The position numbers and the translations under genes are program-made. The notes under the pieces are model-generated. The model made no database searches, was not told where the DNA came from, and saw only the letters and a list, made by a program, of their open reading frames with translations. From positions 17,211-81,210 of IMG/VR virus record IMGVR_UViG_3300034062_006954: 64,000 nt of DNA; one strand, written 5' to 3'. Source of the DNA: a virus. Of the stretch, positions 1 to 33,472 are shown piece by piece. Within the stretch, counting starts at the first letter, position 1; each line of letters opens with the position of its first letter.

Positions 1-237
1 ACCTTTACCATCAGTTGTTGCACCACCTACACCCAAATATTGTTCAATAGCTCCCAATGTTTTAACTCCGAATTGATTATCGGCAGTGCCAGGATTTTTA
101 CCTGCTTTAATCAAAGCATTTTGTAAATCTTGGATTGTGTAGTTCGTTTGGGGTTGAGTTATTTCTGATAAAATTTTTGAGTTGTGTTTTCTCAAAATTT
201 CATATTTTTCACTTTCTGATATATATAATCTTTTCAT
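1..237 (-). CDS. Partial protein with N-terminal tag and peptidoglycan-binding-like domain
   Basis: The reading frame starts at 237 and stays open to the window edge, so only the first 79 residues are seen. The N-terminus (MKRLYISESEKYEILRKHNS) closely resembles that of the next gene (263-1342), then an ILSE site follows near residue 25. Residues 33-70 look like a PG_binding_1 repeat (IQDLQNALIKAG, FGVKTLGAIEQYLG). It reads as a paralogue of its neighbour and a virion or internal head protein that may contact cell wall. The function is inferred from the domain type only. Confidence 0.7.
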   Translation of the reverse strand, partial: MKRLYISESEKYEILRKHNSKILSEITQPQTNYTIQDLQNALIKAGKNPGTADNQFGVKTLGAIEQYLGVGGATTDGKG

Positions 238-262
238 ATTAATTTTAATAATTAGTTACTAT

Positions 263-1342
263 TTATTGCACTCCTTTAGCTTGTGGTGATGTTGCTGTGT
301 TTGTTGTTGTATTAGTTCCACCTTGAATTTTGGCCATTAAAGCATTAATTGTTGCCTGATCCATTTTACCTGATTGTGTTAATCCTAATTTTTGTTGTAC
401 TGCTGAGACTCTTGCACTTAAGTCACCTCCACCAGTATTAGTTCCTCCACCACTTGCCTTTTCTTTTTTACTATCTAAGGCTGAGTAATCTTGGGCATCA
501 ACAATACCATCACCATCACATTTATAATATCTTCTCTCTACCATTCCTTCCCACCAATATGTACCATCTGGTTGGTAAGTAATATTTTTTCCTTTCTTTT
601 CACTATATCTCTTATAACTTATAATAGTTTTTCCTTCAATATCCTTAACAGGTGTAATACCTTGAGATTTAGGTACACAAGGATAACTTTTCCAATTTTC
701 TGGTACATTAGCATTACTCGTTGAAGTTCCTGCATTTTTTGATACTTCCTCAGTCTTTTTAATTGCTTTACGTAATGGAATCTTAACACTATTTATCCAA
801 GCTTCACTTTTATAAAACTCATCAGACAATACTGACATTAAATCTTTATTATATATTTCTTTATAGTTTTGTATAACTCCACATAAATCAGGAATACTGG
901 CAATGGAACCTAATTGTTCTGCTATTTTTTTTGCACTATCATCTGTTGCATAACCACCACCTAAATAGTTTGTTGTATTAATTAAATTATTTAAATTTTT
1001 AGCAATATCATCTAATTTGTCACTATTTATTGCTGGTCCAACTTTGTTTGCTGTACAAAGTTCTCTAATATTTCCATTAAATGTAGGTCTATCATTACTA
1101 CTATATAATGCACCAATCAGTCCCCCAACAGTTCCACCGATAATCATACCTGGAACACCAGCAAACATACCCATTTGAGCACCAGCACCAGCACCTCTAA
1201 GAGTTGAACCAAGAGTACCTTGACTTAGTGCATCGTAGTAAGTAGCTTGTTCTTGCATCAAATATTGTTTTTTTGTATGACTTTCGTGTAACTTTAAAAT
1301 CCTTTCTTTTTCGGATTCATCTAAAAAATATAATTTTTTCAT
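263..1342 (-). CDS. Putative internal/virion protein with C-terminal peptidoglycan-binding-like domain
   Basis: 359 residues. Residues 1-25 are a charged tag (MKKLYFLDESEKERILKLHE) ending in an L-x-E site. Residues 45-85 are Gly/Ala-rich (AGAGAQMGMFAGVPGMIIGG), which resembles a glycine-zipper membrane segment. Near residues 307-335 there is a PG_binding_1-like repeat (VQQKLGLTQSGKMDQATINA). The tag, hydrophobic segment and wall-binding repeat together suggest an injected protein acting at the cell envelope, but this is inference. An ATATTTATAA motif lies at 1360-1368 upstream of the start. Confidence 0.65.
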   Translation of the reverse strand: MKKLYFLDESEKERILKLHESHTKKQYLMQEQATYYDALSQGTLGSTLRGAGAGAQMGMFAGVPGMIIGGTVGGLIGALYSSNDRPTFNGNIRELCTANKVGPAINSDKLDDIAKNLNNLINTTNYLGGGYATDDSAKKIAEQLGSIASIPDLCGVIQNYKEIYNKDLMSVLSDEFYKSEAWINSVKIPLRKAIKKTEEVSKNAGTSTSNANVPENWKSYPCVPKSQGITPVKDIEGKTIISYKRYSEKKGKNITYQPDGTYWWEGMVERRYYKCDGDGIVDAQDYSALDSKKEKASGGGTNTGGGDLSARVSAVQQKLGLTQSGKMDQATINALMAKIQGGTNTTTNTATSPQAKGVQ

Positions 1343-1407
1343 AATAATAATTTTTTTATTATAAATATCTTAAGATAATAAAAAATTTATAAATACAATA
1401 AATAAAG

Positions 1408-1431
1408 AACCCCATCTTTTAAAATGGGGTT
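1408..1431 (-). terminator. Intrinsic terminator-like hairpin after 1439-2530 gene
   Basis: Perfect inverted repeat of AACCCCAT around a short A/T loop, just after the stop codon of the gene at 1439-2530. The U-tract on the minus strand is weak. Confidence 0.6.
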
Positions 1432-1438
1432 ATATGAA

Positions 1439-2530
1439 TTAACCTAATTTATCTGGACCATTACCCTTTAAAAACTTATCCAATTCTGTTAAGTAAGGAT
1501 TTACACCTTTGGTAAGTTGAGTTGATGGTTCGTTTTTGATAAACCACATCACATCATTTGGATTATCAACTTTTGGTACAAAACCAGCAATAACTTGCCA
1601 ATCTCCAGCTTGTTTAAGTCCAGGGGCTCCCTTACCCGTTGATTTATATACAATCATATTATCACCCGTTGGTAATTTAATTTCCAAAACTTCCCTACCT
1701 GAAATATTGGTTCTATTAACAACTTTAACATCCTTCGGATTGAACTTCATTGTCTCAAGTTTCTTAGCTTTCCCAAATAATTTATCCAACTCAACTTCAT
1801 GTTTAGTTGTAATAAACCAATTTGATTTAACCCAACTTGGTACAGCATTAGGGATGTTTTTTACTAAATTCTGAGGTGAAAACTTATCAAGTACAACTTG
1901 TCTGAAATTAGTTCCATCAGCTAATTGTCTTGGTAATGTATTAATAACATCATCAATTTTTAATGTCTTATTTTGAAGTCCATCTAATACACTTAAAACT
2001 TGCGTCATAGGTATTTTATTACCACTAGCAGATTCTAAGTATTCTAAACCATTAAAAATTGTTTTATTCGTATTCATACTATTCAAAAAATTGGTATCAA
2101 AAGAACCACTCAATTTACTTAACATTTGATTAGATGGTGTACCAATATTTTTTACTAAATTTTTGTTAGAGAACTTATCAAGTACAACTTGTCTGAAATT
2201 AGTTCCATCAGCCAATTGTCTTGGTAACATATTAATAACCTCATCTACTTTTAAGGTTTTGTTATTTAAACCATCTAAAATAGTTGATATTTGAGTCATA
2301 GGTATTTTTTTACCACTTGCAGATTCTAAATACTCAATCCCATTAAAAATAGTTTTATTCTTATTCATACTACTGAAAAAATTACTATCAAAAATACTAG
2401 TCAATTTACTTAGCATTTTATTTGGTTGTACATTCATATTCTTCAGAAAGTTGAAGTTAATTTCTGAAACAACGTTTTTAACAAGTTTCGTTAAATCCTT
2501 CTCAGTTAATCTTATTATTTTTTTTCTCAT
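1439..2530 (-). CDS. Two-repeat putative internal head protein with N-terminal cleavage tag
   Basis: 363 residues, no known family recognised. The N-terminus (MRKKIIRLTEKDLTKLVKNV) belongs to the tag family also seen at 20998, 24883 and 25462, with a predicted cut after residue 23 (VSE). Two tandem repeats of about 105 residues follow (roughly 30-130 and 135-230), each with an FNGxEYLESASGxKIPMTQ core and a PRQLADGTNFRQVVLDKF core; the C-terminal 130 residues are unrelated. An ATATTTATAA motif lies at 2547-2555. The best guess is a capsid-internal protein; its biochemical function is unknown. Confidence 0.65.
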   Translation of the reverse strand: MRKKIIRLTEKDLTKLVKNVVSEINFNFLKNMNVQPNKMLSKLTSIFDSNFFSSMNKNKTIFNGIEYLESASGKKIPMTQISTILDGLNNKTLKVDEVINMLPRQLADGTNFRQVVLDKFSNKNLVKNIGTPSNQMLSKLSGSFDTNFLNSMNTNKTIFNGLEYLESASGNKIPMTQVLSVLDGLQNKTLKIDDVINTLPRQLADGTNFRQVVLDKFSPQNLVKNIPNAVPSWVKSNWFITTKHEVELDKLFGKAKKLETMKFNPKDVKVVNRTNISGREVLEIKLPTGDNMIVYKSTGKGAPGLKQAGDWQVIAGFVPKVDNPNDVMWFIKNEPSTQLTKGVNPYLTELDKFLKGNGPDKLG

Positions 2531-2565
2531 TATAATATTTTTTTATTATAAATATCAATGAGTAA

Positions 2566-3243
2566 TTAATATTTATTCCCCTTCTTTATATTTTCTAAAC
2601 CCCACATTGGTTGTAAATTATCCAATGACCAACACTTCTTAAACTCTTCATCCTCACTACCCTCAAATATAAATGATGAAATTGGTTTGATATGGTCAAT
2701 ATGCCATTCACCATAGTTATCCCAATTCATACCATCATTAAATTGTTTTTCTAAATGAACAATAAGTTGTTCAGGAGTATATCCCAATATATCAAAGTAA
2801 TGACCATACTTTTGTAAATTGTTTTCTTTTAATACAATGTATATCGCTGACCTAAAGTTGGAGATGAGTTTATAGAGGGGATCTGTATGTCTTTTGTGTT
2901 TTTGATATACTCTCTTTCTTTCTCTGTGTTTATCTATATTTTTTTCTCTCCATTCTTTATGATAGATGTTTAGTTTGTTTCTATTATTTTTTTGCCATTC
3001 AGAAAAATAATCTAATCTTTTCTGTCTATTTTTTTCATACCATTTTTTATCACTTACAGATTTACCACCCCTGAATTTCATACCTGGTGTACCAACATTT
3101 ACATTGTTTTCTTTTAATACTCGTAAGACTATGTGTTTTTTCAAACCTAACTTTTCAGAAATAGATGGACTACCCAACATCTCTTCGTTGTATAATCTAA
3201 TTATTTCTTTTACAATTGTGATATCTAATTCTATTTTTTTCAT
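2566..3243 (-). CDS. HNH endonuclease with DNA-binding N-terminus
   Basis: 225 residues. The C-terminus carries an HNH core (WHIDHIKPISSF, then WSLDNLQPMW and ENIKKGNKY). Residues 1-50 look like a helix-turn-helix of the type that reads a recognition site. The middle is very basic and aromatic. It sits between the major capsid gene and a structural gene, a typical place for a free-standing homing endonuclease in T4-like phages. Its target is not known. Confidence 0.85.
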   Translation of the reverse strand: MKKIELDITIVKEIIRLYNEEMLGSPSISEKLGLKKHIVLRVLKENNVNVGTPGMKFRGGKSVSDKKWYEKNRQKRLDYFSEWQKNNRNKLNIYHKEWREKNIDKHRERKRVYQKHKRHTDPLYKLISNFRSAIYIVLKENNLQKYGHYFDILGYTPEQLIVHLEKQFNDGMNWDNYGEWHIDHIKPISSFIFEGSEDEEFKKCWSLDNLQPMWGLENIKKGNKY

Positions 3244-3285
3244 ATAATATAAATATAAACATTATAGCGATTGTGTCAACTATAA

Positions 3286-3318
3286 ATAAAAAAAAGAGGG
3301 ACAAAAACTTGTCCCTCT
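3286..3318 (-). terminator. Terminator after major capsid gene
   Basis: Hairpin GAGGGACAAG / CTTGTCCCTC followed on the minus strand by a run of T, 20 bases after the capsid stop codon. A strong intrinsic terminator fits the high expression expected for this gene. Confidence 0.85.
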
Positions 3319-3340
3319 CGTCAATATTAACTAAGATTGA

Positions 3341-5221
3341 TTATCTCAATTCTTGTAAGTCGAATGTTCTAACACCATCAACTGTAATACGCCCATAAAA
3401 TCTATTATTCACCATTTTTTTAGCGTATCTAGTCATGATACCTTTGATTGGTGTAAAGTTGAATGGATTGTACATTGTTGGAGTTAATTGAAGTGGAACA
3501 TACGGAGCGTAGATGTAACCAGTATCAAGAAGTGATGTACCTTTATGTCCGATTAACACTTGGTTAGATGGGAAGTAAGGATCACGATATACTTGGTATC
3601 TACCAGCTAATGTACCCACTCTTTCAATACCCATATTGTATTGGTCTTGCTCAGGAGAAGCATTTGATACGTGGAAGTATTCCAAGTCATCAAAGATTGC
3701 AGAAACCTCAGAAGAAACAACAATCCAGTTAGCACCACCTCTAAGAGTTGATTTGTGGATTTGAGCAGAAAGTTGGTTGATAGCTGTAATCAACGTTTGA
3801 TTCCAGTCTTTTTGAGTGTAAACAGTGTTACCTGCAATTCTTCTCCATCCGTTGTAATCCCAACGTAAATTCCAAGCAGCACCTTTTCTAAGGTCACGAA
3901 GGATTTCTCTATCGATTTCAGCAGCAACTTGCTCAGAAAGAAGAGCAGTTAATTCAGCTTCAGCATCGATATTGTGGAATGCAGCAACGTCTTGAGCAAG
4001 TTCAGGAGACCATTGAGCTCTAAGTTTTCTTTCAGACACAGAAACAGTTACTGATTCAAGGTCAAAAGAAACCTCACCGATTTTATCTTCGAATTCAAGT
4101 TCTTCATATCTTCTCCATACAGCTGTGAAAGAAGTAGCAGAAGATGCTGAGAAAATAGTTGTACCAGTGTAACCATCTAAAGATGAATCACCACAATTTG
4201 CACAAGCAGGACAAGAAAGGTCAACTTCTAAGTAGATACAACCATCTTGACCACAAATGTTATCAAATGTTCCACCATTACCACGATCTGCTGATGTTTT
4301 AGAACCTGAAGTACCACTTGGGAAAACAGTTTGTTCTCTTGTTGATGTTGGATTTACAATACCTTTACCATATTGTTGAGTAACAACTCTGAACAATAAA
4401 TTAGGATAAGTATCAGTAGAAATACCCATAGTATCACAAGTATTTGTATCAGCAGAAATTGTGTTTCTGATAATTCTTAAGTCAGCAAGGAAAGTTTCAG
4501 AATCAACTTCATTTCCATCAGGACCGATTAACTTACCATAACCAGGGAAAGAAGTCCATCCACAAAGTTTCATAACTAACTTTCTAACGTTTGGTGTTGT
4601 TTCAGTGATTTGATAGTTTTCTAAAGAACCATTTACCCACTTCAACAAACCAGTATCTTGAGTGATAGCTGACCAACGACCTTTTGAATAGTCGAATAAA
4701 CCTGCAGGTTCTAAACCTGGTTCAGTTCCTTCATAGAATAAATCATAAAGATTTTTTGCATAAGCACCAGCACCTGTGTAACCAGCATTTGGATTTCCAG
4801 GGTAGTTACCAGGACTACCTACAGGAGAGTAGTGTTCACCTGAATAATCAGGGAAACCTTTTGCATCAAAAGTACCACCACTATAACCTTGGATTTTAGG
4901 TACGAAGTAGAACAATTTACCGATAGGTAAGTTCATAGCTTGTACAGATACGATGTCATTTGCTAACAATTTAGAGAATACTCTTCTTACGATTGGGAAT
5001 ACAACCGTTTCGAATGATCCTGAACTTCCATCAGAAGTTGCTTCGTTGATTAAGAAAGAAGCTTGGTTTTCATATAACTGAGCTACGTTTTCTTTTAGGT
5101 GGCCTCTAAGACCTTCAAGGAATCCTAATCTATCCCATTTGTTAATAGTATCTTCTTTGATAACTTTAAGGTGTTTCAAACCAATGTTACCAACAAGACC
5201 CGATTCTAATAATGCTCCCAT
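3341..5221 (-). CDS. Major capsid protein, T4 gp23-like
   Basis: 626 residues, slightly longer than T4 gp23. Assigned by the order terminase-portal-protease-scaffold-capsid and by gp23-like stretches: TVVFPIVRRVFSKLLANDIV near residues 70-90, WSPELAQDVAAFHNIDAE, and a C-terminal FTPIKGIMTRYAKKMVNNRFYG. The first 60 residues form a propeptide ending FLINE/ATSDG, an I-x-E site matching the position where T4 gp21 trims gp23. A cysteine-rich insertion (CPACANC near residue 340) is not typical and could be a surface loop. It is followed by a strong terminator and preceded by the scaffold gene. Confidence 0.93.
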   Translation of the reverse strand: MGALLESGLVGNIGLKHLKVIKEDTINKWDRLGFLEGLRGHLKENVAQLYENQASFLINEATSDGSSGSFETVVFPIVRRVFSKLLANDIVSVQAMNLPIGKLFYFVPKIQGYSGGTFDAKGFPDYSGEHYSPVGSPGNYPGNPNAGYTGAGAYAKNLYDLFYEGTEPGLEPAGLFDYSKGRWSAITQDTGLLKWVNGSLENYQITETTPNVRKLVMKLCGWTSFPGYGKLIGPDGNEVDSETFLADLRIIRNTISADTNTCDTMGISTDTYPNLLFRVVTQQYGKGIVNPTSTREQTVFPSGTSGSKTSADRGNGGTFDNICGQDGCIYLEVDLSCPACANCGDSSLDGYTGTTIFSASSATSFTAVWRRYEELEFEDKIGEVSFDLESVTVSVSERKLRAQWSPELAQDVAAFHNIDAEAELTALLSEQVAAEIDREILRDLRKGAAWNLRWDYNGWRRIAGNTVYTQKDWNQTLITAINQLSAQIHKSTLRGGANWIVVSSEVSAIFDDLEYFHVSNASPEQDQYNMGIERVGTLAGRYQVYRDPYFPSNQVLIGHKGTSLLDTGYIYAPYVPLQLTPTMYNPFNFTPIKGIMTRYAKKMVNNRFYGRITVDGVRTFDLQELR

Positions 5222-5261
5222 TTTGTATTTGTTTTTGTTTTTTAGCGAGTTTATTGATTTA

Positions 5262-6869
5262 TTATTTTAATTTTGACATTAAATCCTTCATTCTTAAGAA
5301 TTGTGGATTTTCGTAAGTTTTTGACTCAATCAAGTTAACAGCTGAACCAGTTGAAGGTGCTTTTGCAATTGTTCTTTCAATTGATTCACTTACTTGTTGT
5401 GGTTTAGAACTTGTTAATTCGTCTTTGATTGTTTTGTATAAGTTTTTAGATTCTTTGATTGTTTCTACAGAATCAAATCTTTTTAGAATATTAATTTTCT
5501 CTTGTTTTGAAGTAGAATGTTCAGTAAACAATCTTGTAGCGTATGCCAAGTTTGAGTTGAAAGTTGCAACTTCATTAAGTTTATTTCTAAAAATATTTAA
5601 TGCCTTTCTGTATTCTTCGTTTTTCTCTCTAAGGATTTCTAATTCATGCTGATTGAATGATTCTTCAATGTTTGTGTTAAATTTTGAATACGTTCTAGGT
5701 TTTGGTAAACCACCTTTTCTGAATTTTGAACCAGCTCCTAATGTACGTGAAGCTTCTTTAGTTTCCATTTTCTTAGGTGTTGTAACCATTCCCTCTTTAC
5801 GTTCTTTTCTGTGAGTTGGTTTGCCTTTGAATTCACCATCAAAACTTGGAGAATCTTTTTTATAGATATTTGCTTTTTTAGCACTACCAGTTCCCATCAT
5901 TTTGTTAGCGTTTTTACCAACTACCTTGAAACCACCATCCATATTTGGAGTTTTAGACATCTTATATGATTGTGCATTTCCGAAACCGATTCCTTTTGGT
6001 TTAGTTGATTTTTTAGATTTTTTAGATTCAAATAAACCTTCAAATTCTTCATCATCTTCTTCATCCATACCCATCATATTTTCATCTTCTACTTCAAGTT
6101 CATATATTGTTTCTTCGTCCATAGATGACATCATAGATTCAACATCATCATCTTCATACATAGACATCATATCATCATCTTCGTCCATATTCATCATACC
6201 TTCATCTTCCATTTCAAGTTCATATATTGTTTCTTCGTCCATTGACATTACATCAGACTCCATAGTCTCATAACCACCTTCTGGATAGTAATCCTCCTCA
6301 TCTTCTAATCCATCAAATTCTTCATCCATAAATTGATCAGCAAACATACCTTCTATATCTTCTTTTTCCATACCTTCAGAAACTACTAAGTATTCTTTGT
6401 CTGTTTCATTATCTTTGAAGATTGTGTTACCTTTTTTGTCTTTTGTAATAACAATTTCGTCATTTGGGTCTAATAAAGAATAAACTTTCATTACTTGTGA
6501 TGTTGGTGCATTTGTTAAGTCGATAACTTCTTCATCATCTTCCATGTCTTCGTCATCCATGTCATCATCGTCCATGTCCTCTTCATCGTCCATGTCATCA
6601 TCATCCATATCATCGTCATCCATTTCTTCATCATCATCATCAAACTCTACATCAGCCACATCAGTGTCCTCAAAGTCCATTTCTTCATCATCGTCTTCCT
6701 CAACCCCTTTTTTCTTTTTCTTACTTTCAAAAAGAGATTCCTTTACTAAATCTTTGATTTCTTGTTTCATAGTTGAAGCAAGTATTCCTTTTGCATTCTG
6801 AGCAACTGTTTCTTCCAAATTTTTCATTTGGATTATTGCCTCTTCAACAATTGATTTTTCGTTTGCCAT
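5262..6869 (-). CDS. Prohead core scaffolding protein, T4 gp22-like
   Basis: The start at MANEKS (6869) is preferred over an upstream ATG at 6899, which lies inside the leader; 535 residues. The N-terminal third is a long acidic run of DDD/MDD units. Residues 210-290 carry two copies of an MDEETIYELE unit. The C-terminal 110 residues are helical and charged, like gp22 cores. It lies between the protease and capsid genes as in T4. It should fill the prohead and then be degraded by the protease. The acidic part is much longer than in T4 gp22. Confidence 0.85.
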   Translation of the reverse strand: MANEKSIVEEAIIQMKNLEETVAQNAKGILASTMKQEIKDLVKESLFESKKKKKGVEEDDDEEMDFEDTDVADVEFDDDDEEMDDDDMDDDDMDDEEDMDDDDMDDEDMEDDEEVIDLTNAPTSQVMKVYSLLDPNDEIVITKDKKGNTIFKDNETDKEYLVVSEGMEKEDIEGMFADQFMDEEFDGLEDEEDYYPEGGYETMESDVMSMDEETIYELEMEDEGMMNMDEDDDMMSMYEDDDVESMMSSMDEETIYELEVEDENMMGMDEEDDEEFEGLFESKKSKKSTKPKGIGFGNAQSYKMSKTPNMDGGFKVVGKNANKMMGTGSAKKANIYKKDSPSFDGEFKGKPTHRKERKEGMVTTPKKMETKEASRTLGAGSKFRKGGLPKPRTYSKFNTNIEESFNQHELEILREKNEEYRKALNIFRNKLNEVATFNSNLAYATRLFTEHSTSKQEKINILKRFDSVETIKESKNLYKTIKDELTSSKPQQVSESIERTIAKAPSTGSAVNLIESKTYENPQFLRMKDLMSKLK

Positions 6870-6884
6870 TTTTTTTATTTTTTT

Positions 6885-6893
6885 TATAAATAT
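6885..6893 (-). promoter_or_regulatory. Late-promoter-like motif upstream of scaffold gene
   Basis: ATATTTATA on the minus strand 16 bases before the start codon, in the same position as copies before most virion genes. See the finding on the window-wide motif. Confidence 0.5.
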
Positions 6894-6976
6894 GTTCATT
6901 TATGAAAAATATTACTTTTGAGTAATATCAAAAGAATTTTTTTTATATACATAAATATTGAGGTTTTCACAAAAAT

Positions 6977-7006
6977 CAAAAGGGGACTCTTCCGAATCCC
7001 CCTTTT
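6977..7006. terminator. Bidirectional terminator-like hairpin
   Basis: AAAAGGGGGATTCGG / AGTCCCCTTTT-type stem between the scaffold gene and the small gene at 7028-7243, with T-rich flanks on both sides. Confidence 0.65.
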
Positions 7007-7027
7007 ATTTTTAAATAACTATAAAAA

Positions 7028-7243
7028 TTATTCAATTACTTCATCAATTTTACTTTCAACTATGGCGGTTATTCTCCAATCCATAGTATAATGTTCATAA
7101 ATTTTTGTGACTTTTGCTTCAACATCAGTTGGATTATAACCTAATACTAATTTTTCCAACTTAATTTTTTTAACTTTTCCACTTTCTTCATCAACTAAAT
7201 CTTCAGTAATTTTTGCAACGAAATATTTTTGTCCACTTTCCAT
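7028..7243 (-). CDS. Small DUF4494-like protein in head cassette
   Basis: 71 residues. The pattern of a YF-x-x-K start, a central basic stretch, then a T-(D/E)-x-E-A-K-V segment and a C-terminal I-x-A-x-x-E resembles DUF4494, a small family common in Bacteroidota phages and bacteria. The match is by eye and tentative. It sits between protease and scaffold genes, where T4 has gp67/gp68, so a core or assembly role is possible. Confidence 0.6.
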   Translation of the reverse strand: MESGQKYFVAKITEDLVDEESGKVKKIKLEKLVLGYNPTDVEAKVTKIYEHYTMDWRITAIVESKIDEVIE

Positions 7244-7267
7244 ATTTGAATTTTTTTTTTAATTTGT

Positions 7268-7993
7268 TTAATAACCCAAATAATCGTTAAGTCTTTTCAT
7301 TAAGTCAAGAGATTTGTTACCATTTTCACCAACATTTCTTTCCATTGCCATATTTTTATCATCGTCTAAATTTTCATCCAAACTTGCCCTATCTTCCTTA
7401 TTCAAAAATAGATATGCACCAGGCGTTGATGGTGATGATACCAAATCAAAACAAATTAATTCAAAATCATCTTGAACCTCATTTTGTTCCCCAACTTTTT
7501 TTAATGAACCAACACCACGAGAAGAAATACCTAAAGTTACACCCTGACGTAAATAATTTGCTGCCATATCTCCTTTAGTAGAAACAATTCCTCTTTCGTG
7601 GAAACCTGGACTTGTCAACAATTTTAGTTTTCCCATTAAAACAGGACCTTCCCACCATATTTCTGTTATAATATGAGAAACTCTATCTAAGTCTATTAGA
7701 GAAGATTCAGGGTGATTTAATTCAGATAAGGAAGTACCCTTTTGAATCATTTTTTTATAGTTTTCAGCTTCTCTCTTTAAAATACGTTCAGGATAAATTC
7801 TACCATTACGATTTGGTGTATTGAATTTTTGTAATACAGCGTAAAACTCAAATGGTTTAGAATGGTCTAAAAAGTTTTTAGACTCTTTAATTATTTTTGC
7901 ATTTTCTTCGTGAGATGGTGAAACGAATCCAGCATCCTCTTCAATTAAAATCCCCTTTCCGCTTTGACCAGGTTTTAATATTTTAAGTTCCAT
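7268..7993 (-). CDS. Prohead core protease, T4 gp21-like
   Basis: 241 residues of a U35/U9-type serine protease fold. The family pattern is visible: PNRNGRIYP near residue 60, the catalytic His in SELNHPES near 93, and the catalytic Ser in GISSRGVGS near 150, followed by ICFDLVSSPSTPGA. It should trim capsid, scaffold and internal proteins after L/I-x-E sites during head maturation. Many proteins in this window carry such sites at their N-termini. An ATATTTATTTATAA motif lies just upstream. Confidence 0.9.
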   Translation of the reverse strand: MELKILKPGQSGKGILIEEDAGFVSPSHEENAKIIKESKNFLDHSKPFEFYAVLQKFNTPNRNGRIYPERILKREAENYKKMIQKGTSLSELNHPESSLIDLDRVSHIITEIWWEGPVLMGKLKLLTSPGFHERGIVSTKGDMAANYLRQGVTLGISSRGVGSLKKVGEQNEVQDDFELICFDLVSSPSTPGAYLFLNKEDRASLDENLDDDKNMAMERNVGENGNKSLDLMKRLNDYLGY

Positions 7994-8028
7994 AATCTTT
8001 TATAAATAAATATCATTATTTTTGATAT

Positions 8029-8478
8029 TTATATTTCTGTGGATTTGTTCTTTTTTGTTAATGAAAAATTGAAGTATTCGTTTTTCAAAAAATTTTGATT
8101 GATTACATTTTTAGTAAGAGATTTAAGATTCTCTTTTAAGTTGGTATCTTTGAAATCTAAATTTTCTTCTTTCAAGAAAAGATTAATTTCTAAATTAAGA
8201 AAAGACTTTTTAGTTAAACTAATACCACTTGATCTCAAATCTAAATCAACAATAAAATTTTCTTTGAATAAATGATTATTTAGATTGTTATGAACTGAGT
8301 GTTTTATGGCACGTGATAAATTTAGAACAACACGATTCCAATTATCTGAATCTTTTTTTGGTTCTACCCAAGTCTGAATATTTAAATATATTGATTTTAG
8401 TTCGAAAGAGTCGACAGTACCATACGTAATTTTTGCTATTTTAAACCCTAAAATTTTAGAGGTTTTTCCTTTTTTCAT
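8029..8478 (-). CDS. Conserved-position head-cassette protein of unknown function
   Basis: 149 residues, no family recognised. It has a basic N-terminus and alternating beta-like stretches (FKIAKITYGTVDSFELKSIY, FIVDLDLRSSG). It lies directly upstream of the protease and in the same orientation, so it is probably co-expressed with head genes. Confidence 0.6.
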   Translation of the reverse strand: MKKGKTSKILGFKIAKITYGTVDSFELKSIYLNIQTWVEPKKDSDNWNRVVLNLSRAIKHSVHNNLNNHLFKENFIVDLDLRSSGISLTKKSFLNLEINLFLKEENLDFKDTNLKENLKSLTKNVINQNFLKNEYFNFSLTKKNKSTEI

Positions 8479-8572
8479 TAAATAAAATTTTACAATTGTT
8501 TATTTTAGAAAAAAGTAATTAAATTTGTTTTAAAAGTCAAAAAACAATAAATCATTATAAAAAACCATAAAA

Positions 8573-8764
8573 ATGTTAATAGTACAAGTAGATAACAAAA
8601 CCCCAATTGAAAAAGCTTTGAAACTATTCAAAAGTAAAGTTATTAAAACTAAATTGATGTCTGAATTGAGAAATCGAAAAGAATTTACTAAACCATCAAT
8701 AACCAAGCGTAAAACTAAGAATAGTGCAATTTACAGAGAACAAATGAAAAAAACTGAAAACTAA
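8573..8764 (+). CDS. rpsU: Ribosomal protein bS21
   Basis: 63 residues, the normal length of bS21. The family signature is clear: MLIVQV start, IEKALKLFKSKV, LRNRKEFTKPS and a basic tail ending in a helix (YREQMKKTE). It would join the host 30S subunit near the 3' end of 16S rRNA. It is the only plus-strand gene inside the head cassette, so it has its own promoter (leader 8479-8572), and its stop overlaps the end of the convergent 8761-9474 gene by four bases. Phage bS21 genes are known, and in Bacteroidota bS21 helps hide the anti-Shine-Dalgarno sequence. Confidence 0.9.
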   Translation: MLIVQVDNKTPIEKALKLFKSKVIKTKLMSELRNRKEFTKPSITKRKTKNSAIYREQMKKTEN

Positions 8765-9474
8765 ATTGACTCCTTTAAACTTTTAAGTTTATAGTAATTT
8801 AACTTAGTGTAATTTTCACTTTTCATTTTTTCAATACTTTCATTTATTTTTACTACAACATCAGATTCTGCTGATTTCTTTAAATCAGTAAGTTTTTCTA
8901 TTACATTCTCTTTCAACTTACCATATTCACTCTTTAGAATATTGTCATCTTCATTCAACATATTTTCAAGTTCTCGTTTTTCAGATTCACTTAAGTTATC
9001 TATGTAACCCTTAATGGTTTTATTTGCAATATTCACAATAGTTTTTATTGGTAACTCAATTGAATCAGATGAGTTTAATGGTTTCTTTCTAAGAGTTTCT
9101 GATAGTATTTTTTTACTACTAATTTTTTCATTGATAGATGTTACATCATTAGAAAAAAGTTTGTCAATTGTTTCATATTTGTTTTCTGTTTGGATATTAC
9201 CTATCCATTTTTTTATCTCAAGAATTTTATTATTAGTAACTTTGTTAATCAAGTTTTCATATATTTTAACACTCTCATTAAGGTAATCATTAATAAGAGT
9301 GTTATCCATTCCTTGGTTTGTATTTAATTCATCGTATAAGTAAAAAAGACTACTTATAGTTTTGTCCTCCAGAACTAATTTTTTAAAGTTTTTTATTTCA
9401 TTTTTAAAACTTTTTTTGATATATGATTCTAATAATTTCTCTTCAATTTTTGATTTAAGTGTCCCGAATTTCAT
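8761..9474 (-). CDS. Helical charged head-cassette protein
   Basis: 237 residues from the ATG at 9474, chosen over 9498 because the longer start overlaps the portal stop codon and the ATATTTATAAA motif at 9487-9495. It is Lys/Glu-rich and predicted almost fully helical, with many possible L/I-x-E sites (KLLES near residue 15). Its position between portal and protease corresponds to T4 gp67/gp68, so a core component processed by the protease is likely. No sequence family was recognised. Confidence 0.6.
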   Translation of the reverse strand: MKFGTLKSKIEEKLLESYIKKSFKNEIKNFKKLVLEDKTISSLFYLYDELNTNQGMDNTLINDYLNESVKIYENLINKVTNNKILEIKKWIGNIQTENKYETIDKLFSNDVTSINEKISSKKILSETLRKKPLNSSDSIELPIKTIVNIANKTIKGYIDNLSESEKRELENMLNEDDNILKSEYGKLKENVIEKLTDLKKSAESDVVVKINESIEKMKSENYTKLNYYKLKSLKESI

Positions 9475-9494
9475 AGTGTTTTTATTTATAAATA

Positions 9495-11294
9495 TCAATC
9501 GTTTAAAAGTTTACTTAATTGGTTTTCCATTTCACCTAAAAAATTTTTACCTTTAGATAAATCAATAAAAGAATCATCATCTAAAAGATTTTCACTCTCT
9601 AATAATATTTTTAAATTATCTCGATTGAAAGATTCAGGTGTCAAACCTCCCCCTTCTCCTCCAACTGGTGGTGGAGGTGGAGCTCCTCCAGGAGATGGTG
9701 GTGCACCTGCTCCTCCTCCTGTAGTCGTTGTTGTACCACTTTTTGTTGAGTATAACTTATCTAAGTTATCAAAAACACCAGTATGAGTTATAATTGTTGC
9801 AGTATTTTTCAATTCAGCACCAACTGCTTGTTCTATTCTTTGTTGTTGTAAGTCAATCTTAATTTCTTCATCAGAGAATCCAAGAATGTGTTTTTTAGCC
9901 CACGTGATTGAAACTGGCATAATACCTTCAGCACCTGCTGTTGTTGCCTCTTTATAAGCCGCAAATTTTTCTTTCCAAACATCAACTTTCAATAAATCAG
10001 CTTGAGTTGATGGATTTGTTAAACTTAATGTAAAGTTATTTAACTCGTCTTCAAATCCCAATAAGAATAAATGAATGATTGCTATTTTATTCATTTCAGC
10101 AACCATTGATTTTTGAATTCTATTAATTGTTCTTGCAAAACGAATATCAATTAACGATAAGTTTTTTCCATCCCCAACAGGTTCTTCAAATCCTAAAAAT
10201 GCTTTAGGTACACGTAATGCGGTAAGAAGTTTTTTCTGAATGTATTCAATATCGGCAATCTCACCTAAGTTTGTTCCACCCGCTAATGTTTCGATAGGGT
10301 TAGTTGCTGCAGGATCCCTCACAGGTATAAAATAATCTTGGTCAACAGCCATTTGATTAAATCTCATATCAACATTACCTGTTTGAGAATCAACTACCTG
10401 ACTACGTTTAAATTTGTTTGCAACACGTTGTACATATGGTTCAACATCCTTATCATCCATATTACCAACGAATACTTTAAATACCCTTCTTTCAGGAGCA
10501 CGAGAAGTTCTATATATCAACATCGCATCTTCAGATAACAATAATTGTTTCCAAATACGTCTTGCTTTTTCTAACATTGATGTACCATAAGGAAGTTTTC
10601 TATCATCACCTAATAAACGGAAGTGAGCAATTTCCCAAGAATTGAACTCCATATCCTTAGCCTTCCATTTAAATCTAAGACCCTTGTTTTCTGCAGGTTC
10701 TTCAACATTTTGTCTACTTGCTTGTGCTGGCATACCTCTTTCCAAACGTTCAATTTCAATGTTTGGTAATTGCATACAACCAACAACTCCTTTTTCTGAA
10801 TCCAATTTCAAATACACAAAGTTATCACCATACTTACAAGTATTCCTCGTCCACATAGGTAAATTTGTATTGATATCAAGTACATTGATAAACAAGTCTA
10901 TCAATATTGATTTAATTCTTTTTGATTCAGAATATATTTGCAACATATAACCATTATGGTCAACAGTTGTTGCTTCTTCACCATAAATGTCCAATGCTGC
11001 AGATATTTCTGGTGTATATTCCATACTTTCATAATCATAAAATGATGCCAACCTCGTTGGTTCATAATAAACTGCTTGAGTATATAAGTTACTTTCAATC
11101 TTTGTCCATTGATTGGCCAAATAATAAGTTTGTTGTGCTTGTAAAAGTTCCTTTTCGTATTCTTGTTTAGAAGGTGTACGTAGTAGTTCTTTTTTATCAA
11201 ACTTATAAGTTGGATAATCCTGATTTAATAAAGCATTAGGTCCGAAAGCGTGGGACAACCTTTGCCAAACTGTTAAATTATTTTTTTGTTCCAT
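9495..11294 (-). CDS. Portal vertex protein, T4 gp20-like
   Basis: 599 residues. gp20-like features include YTPEISAALDIYGEEATT near residues 85-100, PYGTSMLEKARRIWKQLLLSEDAMLIYR near 230-260, RAPERRVFKVFVG, and the P-K-A-F-L-GFEEPVG segment near 365. A Gly/Pro-rich linker (about 515-550) and a short acidic tail form an extended C-terminus. It forms the dodecameric ring through which DNA enters and leaves the head. Confidence 0.93.
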   Translation of the reverse strand: MEQKNNLTVWQRLSHAFGPNALLNQDYPTYKFDKKELLRTPSKQEYEKELLQAQQTYYLANQWTKIESNLYTQAVYYEPTRLASFYDYESMEYTPEISAALDIYGEEATTVDHNGYMLQIYSESKRIKSILIDLFINVLDINTNLPMWTRNTCKYGDNFVYLKLDSEKGVVGCMQLPNIEIERLERGMPAQASRQNVEEPAENKGLRFKWKAKDMEFNSWEIAHFRLLGDDRKLPYGTSMLEKARRIWKQLLLSEDAMLIYRTSRAPERRVFKVFVGNMDDKDVEPYVQRVANKFKRSQVVDSQTGNVDMRFNQMAVDQDYFIPVRDPAATNPIETLAGGTNLGEIADIEYIQKKLLTALRVPKAFLGFEEPVGDGKNLSLIDIRFARTINRIQKSMVAEMNKIAIIHLFLLGFEDELNNFTLSLTNPSTQADLLKVDVWKEKFAAYKEATTAGAEGIMPVSITWAKKHILGFSDEEIKIDLQQQRIEQAVGAELKNTATIITHTGVFDNLDKLYSTKSGTTTTTGGGAGAPPSPGGAPPPPPVGGEGGGLTPESFNRDNLKILLESENLLDDDSFIDLSKGKNFLGEMENQLSKLLND

Positions 11295-11332
11295 AAATTT
11301 AATTTAATGAAAAATATCAATAATTAAATAAT

Positions 11333-11482
11333 TTAATTATTTTGATTTTTTTGGAGTTGGTCATTATTTTGTACAGACTTGTCTGTTGGTATAATTTTCT
11401 TTGTTGCAATTCCTTGTCCTGGTACATTTAATTTTGAACCATCAAATTTTTTACCCGATTTTTTTCTTCTTGTAACTCCCAT
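11333..11482 (-). CDS. Small basic protein between portal and terminase
   Basis: 49 residues from the ATG at 11482 (MGVTRRKKSGKKFDG). The upstream ATG at 11515 lies inside the terminase 3' end. An ATATTTATAA motif at 11494-11502 precedes it. It is basic and Gln/Asn-rich at the C-terminus, and no family was recognised. Its conserved-looking position suggests a small head protein. Confidence 0.55.
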   Translation of the reverse strand: MGVTRRKKSGKKFDGSKLNVPGQGIATKKIIPTDKSVQNNDQLQKNQNN

Positions 11483-11501
11483 AATCTTTATTTTATAAAT
11501 A

Positions 11502-13265
11502 TTATCTACCACCAAATAACCAAGAATATTTCATATAATCCTCCTTGGAGATATTTTGATTTCTTTGATTTATTCTTTCGTGACCATAAGGTATTACAGG
11601 ATTAAAATCAATTTGTTTAGTAACCTCTTCATTATTACTTACAGACCATGAATCTAACATAGCTTTTGTTTGTTCAGTAACTTTTTCCAAATTACTAAAA
11701 GAAGACTCAGCAACATAAGTAGCCATTGCAATTGACATAATTAAATCATCATGTTGTCCCTTTTGATGGTCAGGTCTTCCATTTACATATACAAAAGTAT
11801 TCATTTCATCAAATAATCTTGAACTATGAATTTTAAATTCATGTCTCATTACCTCCTCAAATGATGCTATAATCTGAACACGTTTATTATTAAAATTAAT
11901 ACCTGGTATCTTATCTAAAGCCTTTGGATCATACTTCCATTTATTTGCCAAATCAACACCATCTATGTATAAATTTTTATAACCCATTTCTTGTAACTTT
12001 CTTGATGTCGCAACACCCATACCACCAGTTATATCTATTACGATAAAACAATTATACATATTACCCCACTTGTAACATATCTCAGCCATTGTATCAGGTG
12101 GAAGTTTTCCAACATATTCGGCAACTTGTTCACGTTCATCAAAATCGATAATTTGGAATGAACTAAAGTCCTCACTATCACCTCTACTAACATCCACACC
12201 CATAACGTACTTATGTCCCATTATTGGTTCTTTCCATATCCAAAGAGAATTACCAATCATTTTATTTTGGGGTTCTTTAATCATATTTTCTTTAACTCTT
12301 TGCATCATTAAAGAATCAAATACATTATCACCTGAACCAAGAAAATTACACTCTAACTCTTGTGAAACCTTACGTTTGTCATACTTAAGTTTCTTTACCA
12401 TACCCTCAAACCAAGATGAACAAGGTTTATACCCCGAATTCATCATTAACTTTAGTTCTTCAAAATTTCTTTCTTCAAAAGGAATTTGAGCCCAAGAAAT
12501 AATATCTTCTTTTGGATATTCTTCTTTGTTCAGTAAATAATGAATTGTATCTTGAGTTTTTACTAAAAATAAGTCTTTTGTATATCTTGGGTCTCTATAC
12601 CAAAACATTTCAGATATTTTGAAATCATTCATCCCTCTATTTGCTTGATTATAGATTTCATAATATATTGGGTCATAACCATTTGGTGTGGAAACCACAA
12701 TTACTTTACCACCAGTTGAAAGTGATGCCATACAAGCCGCCCAAAAGTCAGAATCAGCATCAATGAACGCAGCTTCGTCAAATACAAGAATTGTTGGAGT
12801 AAAACCACGAAGAGCATCCTTTGACGTTGCAACCGCTTTAACCTCACATCCATTGTTTGTCTTAAAATGTTTTTGAGAATCCTTATCTTTTGAAAAATCA
12901 ATTGCAACCCAAGATGGCCATTGAGTAATAAACATTCTAATTTTATTGGCCATCTCTTGAGATGTATCAAGTTTATTGGCGATTATTAGAATCTTTTCAG
13001 GTTTATTTTTTTTGGCAAATGCTATTTTCTTTGAAATCCAAGCAGCTGTTACTGTGGATACCCCAGCCTGACGATACTTTAAAGCAATGTTTTCATTGTA
13101 ATCTTCATAATCTTGTAATAGTGAAATTTGGTCAGGGAATAACTCCAATGGCACATATTTTGATACCGTATTATCGTAAGTTTCTAAATATGTTTTTAGT
13201 GCATATGTAGTATCCCTCATACACTTAACATACTCAATCATTACTTGTTCTTTTGTTAAACTCAT
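11502..13265 (-). CDS. Terminase large subunit, T4 gp17-like
   Basis: 587 residues with both enzyme domains. ATPase: Walker A-like KYRQAGVSTV near residue 82, Walker B ILVFDEAAFID near 165, and the coupling motif STPNG near 195. Nuclease (RNase H fold): VMGVDVSRGDSEDFS near 365, a second acidic site VIDITGGMG near 415, and HDDLIMSIAMA near 520. It packages DNA into the prohead through the portal and makes the end cuts. No T4-like gp16 small subunit gene is seen next to it. Confidence 0.95.
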   Translation of the reverse strand: MSLTKEQVMIEYVKCMRDTTYALKTYLETYDNTVSKYVPLELFPDQISLLQDYEDYNENIALKYRQAGVSTVTAAWISKKIAFAKKNKPEKILIIANKLDTSQEMANKIRMFITQWPSWVAIDFSKDKDSQKHFKTNNGCEVKAVATSKDALRGFTPTILVFDEAAFIDADSDFWAACMASLSTGGKVIVVSTPNGYDPIYYEIYNQANRGMNDFKISEMFWYRDPRYTKDLFLVKTQDTIHYLLNKEEYPKEDIISWAQIPFEERNFEELKLMMNSGYKPCSSWFEGMVKKLKYDKRKVSQELECNFLGSGDNVFDSLMMQRVKENMIKEPQNKMIGNSLWIWKEPIMGHKYVMGVDVSRGDSEDFSSFQIIDFDEREQVAEYVGKLPPDTMAEICYKWGNMYNCFIVIDITGGMGVATSRKLQEMGYKNLYIDGVDLANKWKYDPKALDKIPGINFNNKRVQIIASFEEVMRHEFKIHSSRLFDEMNTFVYVNGRPDHQKGQHDDLIMSIAMATYVAESSFSNLEKVTEQTKAMLDSWSVSNNEEVTKQIDFNPVIPYGHERINQRNQNISKEDYMKYSWLFGGR

Positions 13266-13287
13266 AAATGTTTTTTTATAAATATAA

Positions 13288-13317
13288 AAACCCCCACTTA
13301 TTTATAAATGGGGGTTT
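13288..13317 (-). terminator. Terminator after 13329-14486 gene
   Basis: AAACCCCCATT / AATGGGGGTTT stem with a U-rich tail on the minus strand, just after the stop codon and just before the terminase start region. Confidence 0.75.
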
Positions 13318-13328
13318 TAAAGTTATTT

Positions 13329-14486
13329 TTAATCTTCATCATCTACATCATATACATCCCAATCATCGGGATTAAAATCATCGTCATCGTACTCATCTTC
13401 CTCAGGTTCAATTGGTTCTACCTTTTTTTCTGTTTTCATAATTTTTTCGTAATCTGGTTTTTCAATTTTCGGTGAATTTTTTTTGATTGTGTTTACAATT
13501 AATTGAGAAAATTCTTCAAACTTTTTCATTCCAGCTGGTTTTCCACCTAACACACCATCGTACATAATTTCGTTAAATAACTTTGGTTTATCATTTGCTA
13601 ATTTGTTGAATTGAGTTTGAATTGCCCCATCCATCCAAGTTTCATAACCATCAATTAATTCACCCCATAAAAATCTTAATTTAGAACTAATTTCTCTACC
13701 AGTAATCATATTCTTAATTTCGTGTTTATGAGTATCGGTAATTTTCGTGAGAGTATTATTAATAGTTTTGTCTTTTGGTAAGTATAACAACGAATTGAAG
13801 TATCTTCCCGCTTTATATAATTCGTGTACCAATAATGGAAAATGTGGAGCTCTAACTTGTATCACCCAACCACCAGGATTAGAATTATCGGGTATAACAT
13901 CAGCAAATGCAACCCTACCAACCGCTTGTTCAGCCATTCTTTCCAACATTGCAACATTATCATTATAGAAAATCGTTGCAGAATTTTCGAATTGTTTGTA
14001 TTTGTTAATTAAATCGGGATCCATTTGATTTAATTGACTTTCTATTTCTTTGTAGGCATTAAATCCTTCAGACCAAGCAGTACCTTGAGTTGTCGCATTA
14101 ATAAAATTTCTTGCCTTAACACGTTCATCAAATTCAGGGTCAACTTCTTTTGCCTTTTCTATTTGTTGTGGTGTAACTTTTTGTGGTGTTGTACGAACTG
14201 TGGCATTTGTTGAAAATTCAACATCCATTCTAATAGTCCCATTATCAACTCTTTCTTTTATCTTTGGAAATTTACTAAAAAATATTGCCAAAGCTAACTT
14301 TAAAAGTTTATCACGATGTTGAGATTCCAAAGATGGTAAATAGCTCATTAACTGACCCATATTATTATTACTACCACCTTCTTCTTTCGCCCTTTGATAT
14401 TTTCTATTTTGAGCACCAAGAATCTTTTCCTTAGCATCTTGACTTAGAAAATCATCAACTGGTGCCTCATATAAAAGTATTTTCAT
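13329..14486 (-). CDS. Putative structural protein upstream of terminase
   Basis: 385 residues, no family recognised. The C-terminal 30 residues are strongly acidic (EEDEYDDDDF). The body is helical with a hydrophobic patch (LLKLALAIFFSKFPKI). It follows the 14488-15696 gene with a one-base gap, so the two are co-translated. A structural or assembly role is inferred from position only. Confidence 0.55.
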   Translation of the reverse strand: MKILLYEAPVDDFLSQDAKEKILGAQNRKYQRAKEEGGSNNNMGQLMSYLPSLESQHRDKLLKLALAIFFSKFPKIKERVDNGTIRMDVEFSTNATVRTTPQKVTPQQIEKAKEVDPEFDERVKARNFINATTQGTAWSEGFNAYKEIESQLNQMDPDLINKYKQFENSATIFYNDNVAMLERMAEQAVGRVAFADVIPDNSNPGGWVIQVRAPHFPLLVHELYKAGRYFNSLLYLPKDKTINNTLTKITDTHKHEIKNMITGREISSKLRFLWGELIDGYETWMDGAIQTQFNKLANDKPKLFNEIMYDGVLGGKPAGMKKFEEFSQLIVNTIKKNSPKIEKPDYEKIMKTEKKVEPIEPEEDEYDDDDFNPDDWDVYDVDDED

Positions 14487-14487
14487 A

Positions 14488-15696
14488 TTATTTTAAATAT
14501 TTTAATGGTTTGTGATATGCTTCATCCATCCTTCTCATAGCTTTATAAAACTCATCTTTAAATTTACTCATATGTCTTCTATCATGGGCTTGAGGTTCAG
14601 GCTCAACTTCAGGATTAGGAACCATTGGTTCATCTTCTTCTGGTGACCATTCAGGTTCTTTTTCTCTGTCAGGTTTAATTCTTGGTTTGATACCTGGTTC
14701 GATAGTTGGAGCAAATGGGTCATTCATACTAAATTTACTTCTTCTCTTTGCTTGAGGTTCAGGCTCAACTTCAGGATTAGGAACCATTGGTTCATCTTCT
14801 TCTGGTGACCATTCAGGTTCTTTCTCCCTATCAGGTTTAATTCTAGGTTTGATACCAGGTTCAATTGTTGGTGCGAATGGGTCATTCATCGTAAAATCTT
14901 CATCAATTTCCGTTTCCTCATAATAGAAATCTTCTTTTAATGATTTTCTTTTTCTAAGTTCACCCTCAATTAACTTCATTAAATCTTTCTTTTTCATAGC
15001 TGGTTGTAAATCTTTAATAATTATATTTTCAATATGTTCTTTAAGTGCTGCATCAAATTTTAAACTAGGTGAAACCTTGCCTAAATTTTCTCTGTAACCA
15101 CCCAATGCTCCACTTTTGACCATATCTAAATAACTTTCTTTAGTTTCTTTCTTTTTGTATTTTACAGTCTTTTCAGGATGTTTTTTTTCAGGCATAGTTT
15201 TGTATTGTTTCTTAGATGTACTCTTAGAAAATTCTTTAGCCATCTTACACCATTTACAATCCTCAGTTTTACATTTGTTACAACGAGCCCAAAATAATTT
15301 TTGTTGTGCCTTTGATTCAAATTTTTCACTTATCTGACCAGTACCATCATCATAATCATCCATTCCATCGTCTGTATCAGGACCTACTTGTTTAGGTTCT
15401 TGTGTTCTACCTTTTAAAGCCCAATTGATATTAGTTTCCTCTTCACTATCATCCTCAGTTAATTTTACATTTTTACATTTAGGGTCTGATTGATTTTGCA
15501 AACAAAAATTAGCTAATTTTAAATCTTCAGGTTTTGTTTTGTCTAATAACGTGGTAACAATTTGTGTAGCCTCTTTATTTTCCTTTTTGGACATTTTTTC
15601 GAACAACAAATTGATTTTACTTTCATTCAAAGTTGAAATGAATTTTGAAGTAAATCCGTTATTTAATAATAAACTAATTTTTTTATTTAAATTCAT
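14488..15696 (-). CDS. Putative internal head protein with exact internal duplication and zinc-ribbon-like patch
   Basis: 402 residues. The N-terminus ends in a STLNE site (residue 25), compatible with prohead-protease trimming. Residues 130-150 hold two CxxC pairs (CNKCKTEDCKWC) that could bind zinc. Residues 270-385 contain two almost identical 50-residue units starting FTMNDPFAP and ending EPEPQA, rich in Pro and Glu, encoded by a recent tandem duplication of roughly 150 bases. No family was recognised. It overlaps the 15683-16093 gene by 14 bases. Confidence 0.55.
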   Translation of the reverse strand: MNLNKKISLLLNNGFTSKFISTLNESKINLLFEKMSKKENKEATQIVTTLLDKTKPEDLKLANFCLQNQSDPKCKNVKLTEDDSEEETNINWALKGRTQEPKQVGPDTDDGMDDYDDGTGQISEKFESKAQQKLFWARCNKCKTEDCKWCKMAKEFSKSTSKKQYKTMPEKKHPEKTVKYKKKETKESYLDMVKSGALGGYRENLGKVSPSLKFDAALKEHIENIIIKDLQPAMKKKDLMKLIEGELRKRKSLKEDFYYEETEIDEDFTMNDPFAPTIEPGIKPRIKPDREKEPEWSPEEDEPMVPNPEVEPEPQAKRRSKFSMNDPFAPTIEPGIKPRIKPDREKEPEWSPEEDEPMVPNPEVEPEPQAHDRRHMSKFKDEFYKAMRRMDEAYHKPLKYLK

Positions 15697-16093
15697 AATT
15701 TAATTTTTTTTCAAATTCAAGAACAATATCCCTCTCGTATAATTTATTTTTAACAACCTCCTCACTATCTCCAAATCTGAAAACTAACCTTTTTACTATA
15801 TCAAAATTTATAGATTCATTTTCATTTTCCCAAGCTAATGCAATTACATCATCAGTTGCATCTATCATTGAAAAATAATCGGACTTTTGAATTACTGACA
15901 ATGTTATTTTATCATTTTTCAAAACTCCGACTTTCTTAATATGTTCTATGTCTGGTGGACTTGGATAACCATTAGATGGTTTTGATTCCCACATTTCTCC
16001 CCACACATCTTCTACTCTGTCTGAAAAAATAAACTCGTATATATTATCACCTCGATAATTAGGTCCCAGTTCATTTACGTAAATTAAAAACAT
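15683..16093 (-). CDS. Conserved-looking protein of unknown function
   Basis: 136 residues with an FLIYVNELGPNYRGDNIYEF start and an acidic C-terminal half. The start codon overlaps the stop of the 16093-17316 gene by one base, which indicates translational coupling. It lacks the N-terminal L/I-x-E tag of its neighbours. The function is unknown. Confidence 0.55.
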   Translation of the reverse strand: MFLIYVNELGPNYRGDNIYEFIFSDRVEDVWGEMWESKPSNGYPSPPDIEHIKKVGVLKNDKITLSVIQKSDYFSMIDATDDVIALAWENENESINFDIVKRLVFRFGDSEEVVKNKLYERDIVLEFEKKLNYEFK

Positions 16094-17316: not shown

Positions 17317-17353
17317 ATTTTTTTTGTTTTTTAATATAAATATATTGAAATAA

Positions 17354-24238: not shown

Positions 24239-24242
24239 CACA

Positions 24243-32757: not shown

Positions 32758-32760
32758 TAA

Positions 32761-32890: not shown

Positions 32891-32896
32891 TGGGGT

Positions 32897-33261: not shown

Positions 33262-33277
33262 TTTTAAGTTAATATTT

Positions 33278-33454: not shown

Positions 33455-33472
33455 ATTCTATTTTAGTTTTTA

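What the first reader, a model, noticed from the sequence alone, without database searches (positions are those of the whole stretch)
8573..8764. Phage-encoded ribosomal protein bS21 embedded antisense in the head cassette
A full-length bS21 gene is the only plus-strand gene between portal and protease. In Bacteroidota, bS21 with bS18 and bS6 covers the anti-Shine-Dalgarno of 16S rRNA, so replacing it could change which mRNAs ribosomes select. Together with tmRNA, 24 tRNAs and a synthetase-like enzyme it suggests remodelling of host ribosomes. Phage bS21 has been described before; the arrangement and the Bacteroidota setting make it notable.
Basis: partly seen in the sequence, partly recalled or inferred. 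Interest (0 to 1): 0.75.

Follow-up and report, generated by a model that had tools for sequence, protein, structure and literature searches.

The report
Phage copy of ribosomal protein bS21
This large virus of Bacteroidota bacteria carries its own copy of a small ribosomal protein, placed backwards among its capsid genes; both the gene and its placement were described in 2022, but the virus copy lacks the strong ribosome-binding signal that controls the usual bacterial copy in the Flavobacteriaceae genomes sampled here.

Summary
Window 8573-8764 (+) is a full-length 63-aa bS21 gene, over the curated cut-offs of PF01165 and TIGR00030. It is the only plus-strand gene in the first 18 kb, inside a T4-like head cassette. 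It is not new as a kind: Chen et al. 2022 (PMC9723584) described bS21 on the opposite strand within the TerL/portal/protease/capsid region of Bacteroidetes phages. This phage fits those clades: 72 of 74 IMG/VR relatives share the arrangement, with TerL 74-93% identical. The bS21s of that arrangement form one clade among Bacteroidota proteins, are under purifying selection (median dN/dS 0.14), keep the ASD-stacking Tyr54 and carry a phage-specific block (S21/V23/I24/K27). My best reading is replacement of host bS21 on ribosomes that keep the anti-SD covered, supporting initiation on SD-less phage mRNAs; incorporation is inferred. What I did not find in the papers read: all 27 distinct phage leaders lack a Shine-Dalgarno, whereas 55 of 57 primary rpsU genes of one Flavobacteriaceae sample have an extreme one. 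Phage bS21 would therefore escape the host's SD-dependent autoregulation. The host is known only as Bacteroidota, and SD is rarer in other groups sampled, so loss of a donor SD is not shown.

The parts
8573..8764 (+). bS21 (rpsU-like) gene, 63 aa, Tyr54 retained, phage block S21-K-V-I-K-T-K-L-M29
   Evidence: PF01165 50.2 bits, TIGR00030 39.1 bits; alignment; residue counts
8479..8572 (.). 94-bp AT-rich divergent intergenic region between bS21 and the gene at 8029-8478; no Shine-Dalgarno before bS21; GTCAAAA at 8536-8542 found in 27 of 29 distinct relatives' bS21 leaders, AAATAAAC (minus strand, 8498-8505) in 24 of 25 leaders of the 8029-8478 gene
8029..8478 (-). 149-aa protein of unknown function, divergent neighbour; by position the counterpart of the bS21_CN gene of Chen et al. 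2022 (not compared by sequence)
   Evidence: found next to bS21 in 72 of 74 relatives, opposite strand; no Pfam/PHROG/NCBIfam match; no match in 196 genomes of the order of G001 (no positive control)
8761..9498 (-). 245-aa protein of unknown function, convergent with bS21 (stop codons overlap)
   Evidence: found in 68 of 74 relatives, opposite strand; no significant family match
7268..7993 (-). prohead protease (Peptidase_S77)
   Evidence: PF03420 E 7e-23; phrog_207
9495..11294 (-). T4-like portal protein (Gp20)
   Evidence: PF07230 E 2.1e-75
3341..5221 (-). major capsid protein (Gp23)
   Evidence: PF07068 E 8.2e-74
11502..13265 (-). terminase large subunit
   Evidence: PF03237 E 1.8e-13; phrog_2 E 2.6e-40

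Best explanation
A phage-owned bS21 that is probably made with the head proteins and takes the place of host bS21 on the 30S platform. It should keep the anti-Shine-Dalgarno covered, because Tyr54 and the rRNA-binding half are retained, while presenting a phage-specific surface (residues 21-29) at the mRNA channel. That would keep initiation on SD-less late phage mRNAs running. Because the gene has no SD of its own, its translation should not depend on bS21-less ribosomes, unlike the SD-controlled primary host rpsU of many Flavobacteriaceae. Where the host has such an SD, filling ribosomes with phage bS21 should also keep host rpsU off. Shown: the gene, its conserved place, clade, selection, Tyr54, signature and missing SD. 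Inferred: expression timing in this phage, incorporation, preference for phage mRNA, and the effect on host rpsU.
For: Full-length bS21 over curated cut-offs. Conserved antisense position in 72 of 74 viral relatives. Phage bS21 of this arrangement forms one clade (98/98 for 30 rows) among Bacteroidota proteins; the best 80 cellular matches are all Bacteroidota at 43-53%. Purifying selection, median dN/dS 0.14, strongest at codons 20-40. Tyr at 54 in 32 of the 33 distinct phage proteins long enough to score. S21, V23, I24, K27 nearly fixed in phages, R/K21, F23, E/D24, G27 in hosts. Phage genes SD-poor. SD at or below -9 kcal/mol in 0 of 27 distinct phage leaders against 55 of 57 primary rpsU of Flavobacteriaceae genomes. 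Chen et al.: bS21 and structural genes transcribed together in lake phages. McNutt et al.: bS21-less F. johnsoniae ribosomes initiate poorly on SD-less mRNAs and well on SD-bearing rpsU.
Against: No evidence that this protein enters ribosomes. Pelagibacter phage bS21 entered E. coli ribosomes but cut their activity to about 5% (PMC6375957), so inhibition of translation is possible. Absence of SD is the ordinary state of Bacteroidota genes, so by itself it is weak evidence of a dedicated escape. The donor lineage is unresolved: Cytophagales and Saprospirales/Chitinophagales samples had strong SDs in only 7-10% of rpsU genes.
Confidence: 0.6

Rival explanations
1. Supply, not selection: the phage simply makes extra bS21 so that 30S assembly and maintenance keep pace late in infection, with no change in mRNA choice.
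For: Tyr54 and the overall sequence pattern retained; purifying selection; expression alongside structural genes in relatives (PMC9723584).
Against: A clade-specific block at 21-29 is nearly fixed and lies in the most constrained part, which plain supply does not call for.
Confidence: 0.25
2. Host shut-off: phage bS21 enters host ribosomes and slows host translation, as Pelagibacter phage bS21 did in E. coli.
For: About 5% activity of E. coli ribosomes carrying phage bS21 (PMC6375957).
Against: That was a mismatched host, as its authors note; capsid production late in infection needs active ribosomes; the gene sits with the head genes.
Confidence: 0.08
3. An extra-ribosomal or virion role for the protein (carried in the head, or bound to phage RNA), with the conserved neighbour at 8029-8478 as partner.
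For: Tight linkage to head genes and to the 8029-8478 gene in 72 of 74 relatives; Chen et al. raise packaging in the virion.
Against: Conserved ribosome-contacting residue Tyr54; no direct evidence.
Confidence: 0.07

Closest known systems
bS21-encoding Bacteroidetes phages, clades a-e (Chen et al. 2022, PMC9723584)
   Same: bS21 on the strand opposite to TerL, portal, prohead protease and capsid genes, between two conserved hypothetical genes; low GC, many tRNAs; aromatic residue at position 54; divergence from hosts at residues 21-28
   Different: Clade assignment not tested (their genomes are not in the collections searched); this record is an 81-kb fragment; missing SD of the phage gene was not discussed in their text
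Primary host rpsU of Flavobacteriaceae (F. johnsoniae bS21, McNutt et al. 2023, PMC9976891)
   Same: Same protein family, Tyr54, length
   Different: 38% identical to this phage protein; host genes carry an extended SD and are autoregulated, the phage gene has none
Second bS21 copies on Flavobacteriaceae chromosomes
   Same: No SD; K at position 27; Tyr54 mostly kept
   Different: Separate clade from the phage proteins; two copies examined lie on long contigs close to DUF2797 genes
Pelagibacter phage HTVC008M bS21 (Mizuno et al. 2019, PMC6375957)
   Same: Phage-encoded bS21, shown to enter E. coli ribosomes
   Different: Alphaproteobacterial origin, other phage group

Membership tests
Ribosomal protein bS21 (PF01165 / TIGR00030) | Score above the curated cut-off over the full profile | tested here: met
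   50.2 bits vs 27, profile 2-54/55; 39.1 vs 28.95, profile 2-56/58
Ribosomal protein bS21 (PF01165 / TIGR00030) | Present in the small ribosomal subunit | not testable with these tools
   needs ribosome proteomics
Bacteroidota-type bS21 (anti-SD covering) | Aromatic residue at position 54 stacking on A1534 | tested here: met
   Tyr54 in the window protein; 32 of 33 distinct phage proteins scored
Bacteroidota-type bS21 (anti-SD covering) | Groups with Bacteroidota bS21 in a tree | tested here: met
   80 of 80 best cellular matches Bacteroidota; one phage clade among Bacteroidota rows; deep placement weak; no bS21 of other phyla was put in the tree
Chen et al. bS21 phages | bS21 on the opposite strand within the TerL/portal/protease/capsid region | tested here: met
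   definition from PMC9723584
Chen et al. bS21 phages | TerL similarity above about 70% to the described phages | tested here: inconclusive
   TerL 74-93% identical to 44 IMG/VR relatives with the same arrangement; their own genomes could not be compared
SD-autoregulated rpsU of Flavobacteriaceae | Extended SD upstream of the start codon | tested here: not met
   Duplex energy +1.6 kcal/mol for the window; none of 27 distinct phage leaders at or below -9

The most novel reading that the evidence does not exclude
The phage gene is an uncoupled bS21: lacking the SD, it is translated by ordinary bS21-replete ribosomes, fills the platform, keeps the anti-SD covered and so holds the SD-controlled host rpsU off, locking the cell into phage bS21 ribosomes. 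Host chromosomal second copies without SD may use the same rule.
Probability: 0.3. Interest if true: 0.65.

Novelty: new member of a known kind. Interest (0 to 1): 0.4.

Why it matters
Phage bS21 is the commonest ribosomal protein in phages, yet its role is untested in its natural hosts. In Bacteroidota the anti-SD cover and rpsU autoregulation are already worked out in F. johnsoniae, so the SD difference found here gives a sharp, cheap test of whether phage bS21 takes over ribosomes and silences host bS21 synthesis.

Tried and rejected
(1) Phage bS21 derived from the host's second bS21 copies (shared K27, no SD): not supported by the tree, where the two are separate groups (SH-aLRT 90 for the phage clade, 96 for the fork holding the second copies). 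(2) GTCAAAA as a late promoter shared by bS21 and capsid genes: rejected, because upstream of the capsid gene it is coding sequence at the end of the preceding gene (..MSKLK-stop). (3) Strong SD as a general host property, hence SD loss in the phage: not supported as stated; an order-level Flavobacteriales sample showed about 17-21%, Cytophagales about 7-10% and Saprospirales/Chitinophagales 10-17% by the two thresholds, and only the Flavobacteriaceae sample showed 96%. (4) Family assignment of the two hypothetical neighbours: nothing significant. (5) The neighbour 8029-8478 as a host gene: no match in 196 genomes, but without a positive control. (6) Three searches with a locus as centre failed on syntax.

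Full report
What is there. The window lies in an 81,210-base virus record (G000). At 8573-8764 (+) there is a 63-aa ORF, MLIVQVDNKTPIEKALKLFKSKVIKTKLMSELRNRKEFTKPSITKRKTKNSAIYREQMKKTEN. It scores above the curated cut-offs of Pfam Ribosomal_S21 and NCBIfam TIGR00030, matches a PHROG named ribosomal protein S21, and matches solved bS21 chains, the best being 9i5v_9 and then F. johnsoniae 7jil_z. It is no chance ORF: 74 viral loci encode relatives, and coding changes among them show a median dN/dS of 0.14 over 118 pairs.

Surroundings. All neighbours are on the minus strand: Gp23-type capsid, S77 protease, T4-type portal and TerL. With genes called at 55 aa or more, bS21 is the only plus-strand gene in 1-18000. 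It is divergent from a 149-aa gene (8029-8478, 94 bp away) and convergent with a 245-aa gene (8761-9498), both without family matches. In 72 of 74 relatives the 8029-8478 gene is present next to bS21, in 70 the protease and in 62 the portal, always on the opposite strand; contigs that end early explain at least part of the missing cases. Two relatives (L073, L074) lack the arrangement.

Already described. Chen et al. 2022 (PMC9723584) report Bacteroidetes phages of 293-331 kb whose bS21 gene lies on the reverse strand within the TerL, capsid, protease and portal region between two hypothetical genes, with bS21 and structural genes transcribed together. They report an aromatic residue at position 54 and divergence at residues 21-28. 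The window matches each sequence feature that I could test. TerL of relatives with the arrangement is 74-93% identical to the window's; they saw bS21 vanish below about 70% TerL similarity. I could not compare with their genomes, so clade membership is unproven, and I file this as a new member of their kind.

Protein. All 80 cellular matches kept were Bacteroidota, 43-53% identical over the matched part. In a tree of 188 bS21 proteins, 30 phage rows form a clade with 98/98 support; adding L074 gives 86/91; L073 falls elsewhere on a very long branch. Only Bacteroidota and phage rows were in the tree. A second tree with 177 rows again groups 31 phage rows (SH-aLRT 90). Placement within Bacteroidota is weak, as 64 columns cannot resolve it. 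Phage proteins have S21, V23, I24 and K27, where hosts mostly have R/K21, F23, E/D24 and G27; Tyr54 is kept in 32 of 33 scored. Codons 20-40 are the most constrained among phages (mean pN 0.063 against 0.271 for 41-59).

Shine-Dalgarno test. McNutt et al. 2023 (PMC9976891) showed that F. johnsoniae rpsU has an extended SD and is translated preferentially by ribosomes lacking bS21. I scored pairing of a 13-nt 16S tail (UCACCUCCUUUCU, entered from my knowledge of the Flavobacteria 16S end) with the 24 bases before each start. None of 27 distinct phage leaders reached -9 kcal/mol (minimum -5.9, from L073; window +1.6), and none holds GGAG within those 24 bases. In genomes of the family of G054 (bS21 85% identical to F. 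johnsoniae's), 55 of 57 primary rpsU genes reached -9, with a median of -17.6, and 0 of 30 second copies did. Other tail lengths gave the same picture. The primary and second copies were told apart by identity to F. johnsoniae bS21, before their leaders were read. Limits: phage leaders come mostly from one clade and are not independent; SD absence is normal for Bacteroidota genes; and order-level samples showed strong SDs in only about 7-21%. So absence is shown, loss is not. Start codons were chosen by alignment to the profile, not by experiment.

Phage mRNAs. Over the genes called in the window, SD pairing is weak (median -0.1 kcal/mol, 1.2% at or below -7), weaker than in a mock window further upstream (median -2.9), and leaders are A-rich. 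The mock window often lies in coding DNA of other composition, so I draw only the conclusion that these genes do not rely on SDs.

Mechanism. Since Tyr54 is kept and phage genes are SD-less, uncovering the anti-SD would gain the phage little. More likely the phage protein substitutes for host bS21 and supports initiation on SD-less mRNAs. The phage block at 21-29 lies in the part that Chen et al. place at the mRNA channel, so an mRNA preference is possible but untested. Lacking an SD, the gene should be translated by ordinary ribosomes and not be throttled by the host circuit; where the host rpsU has an SD, phage bS21 should keep it off. The only direct incorporation data are for a Pelagibacter phage protein in E. 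coli, where ribosome activity fell to about 5% (PMC6375957), so inhibition stays a rival.

Novelty. In the papers searched and read I found no analysis of the SD status of phage rpsU, and McNutt et al. list bS21 paralogs in other phyla without naming Flavobacteriaceae. The library holds only open-licence papers, so this is not proof of novelty.

Noticed in passing
L281-L310 (genomes of the family of G054): Roughly half of 60 Flavobacteriaceae genomes carry a second, some a third, bS21 gene; 0 of 30 of these have a strong SD while 55 of 57 primary copies do, and 27 of 30 have K27 like the phage proteins. Two copies examined sit close to DUF2797 genes on long contigs, not in an obvious prophage.
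   Followed up: partly
window 23860-24241 (+): tmRNA at 102.7 bits by Rfam, not reported by ARAGORN.
   Followed up: no
window 32673-42631 (-): About 22 tRNA genes covering most amino acids (21 by ARAGORN plus one by Rfam), fewer than the 24 stated.
   Followed up: no
window 60930-61763 (+): 277-aa class II synthetase-like protein (PF00152; best NCBIfam matches asparagine--tRNA ligase, far below cut-off), much shorter than a full AsnRS.
   Followed up: no
window 8479-8572: Conserved elements in the divergent region: GTCAAAA before bS21 (27 of 29 distinct relatives) and AAATAAAC before the 8029-8478 gene (24 of 25); read on the minus strand, TTTTGAC followed about 20 bases on by TA-T-rich sequence resembles a Bacteroidota promoter, judged by eye only.
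   Followed up: partly
L069, L070, L075: A diverged phage bS21 subgroup (GKVIRTKQN block, TerL about 74% where held) in the same arrangement.
   Followed up: no
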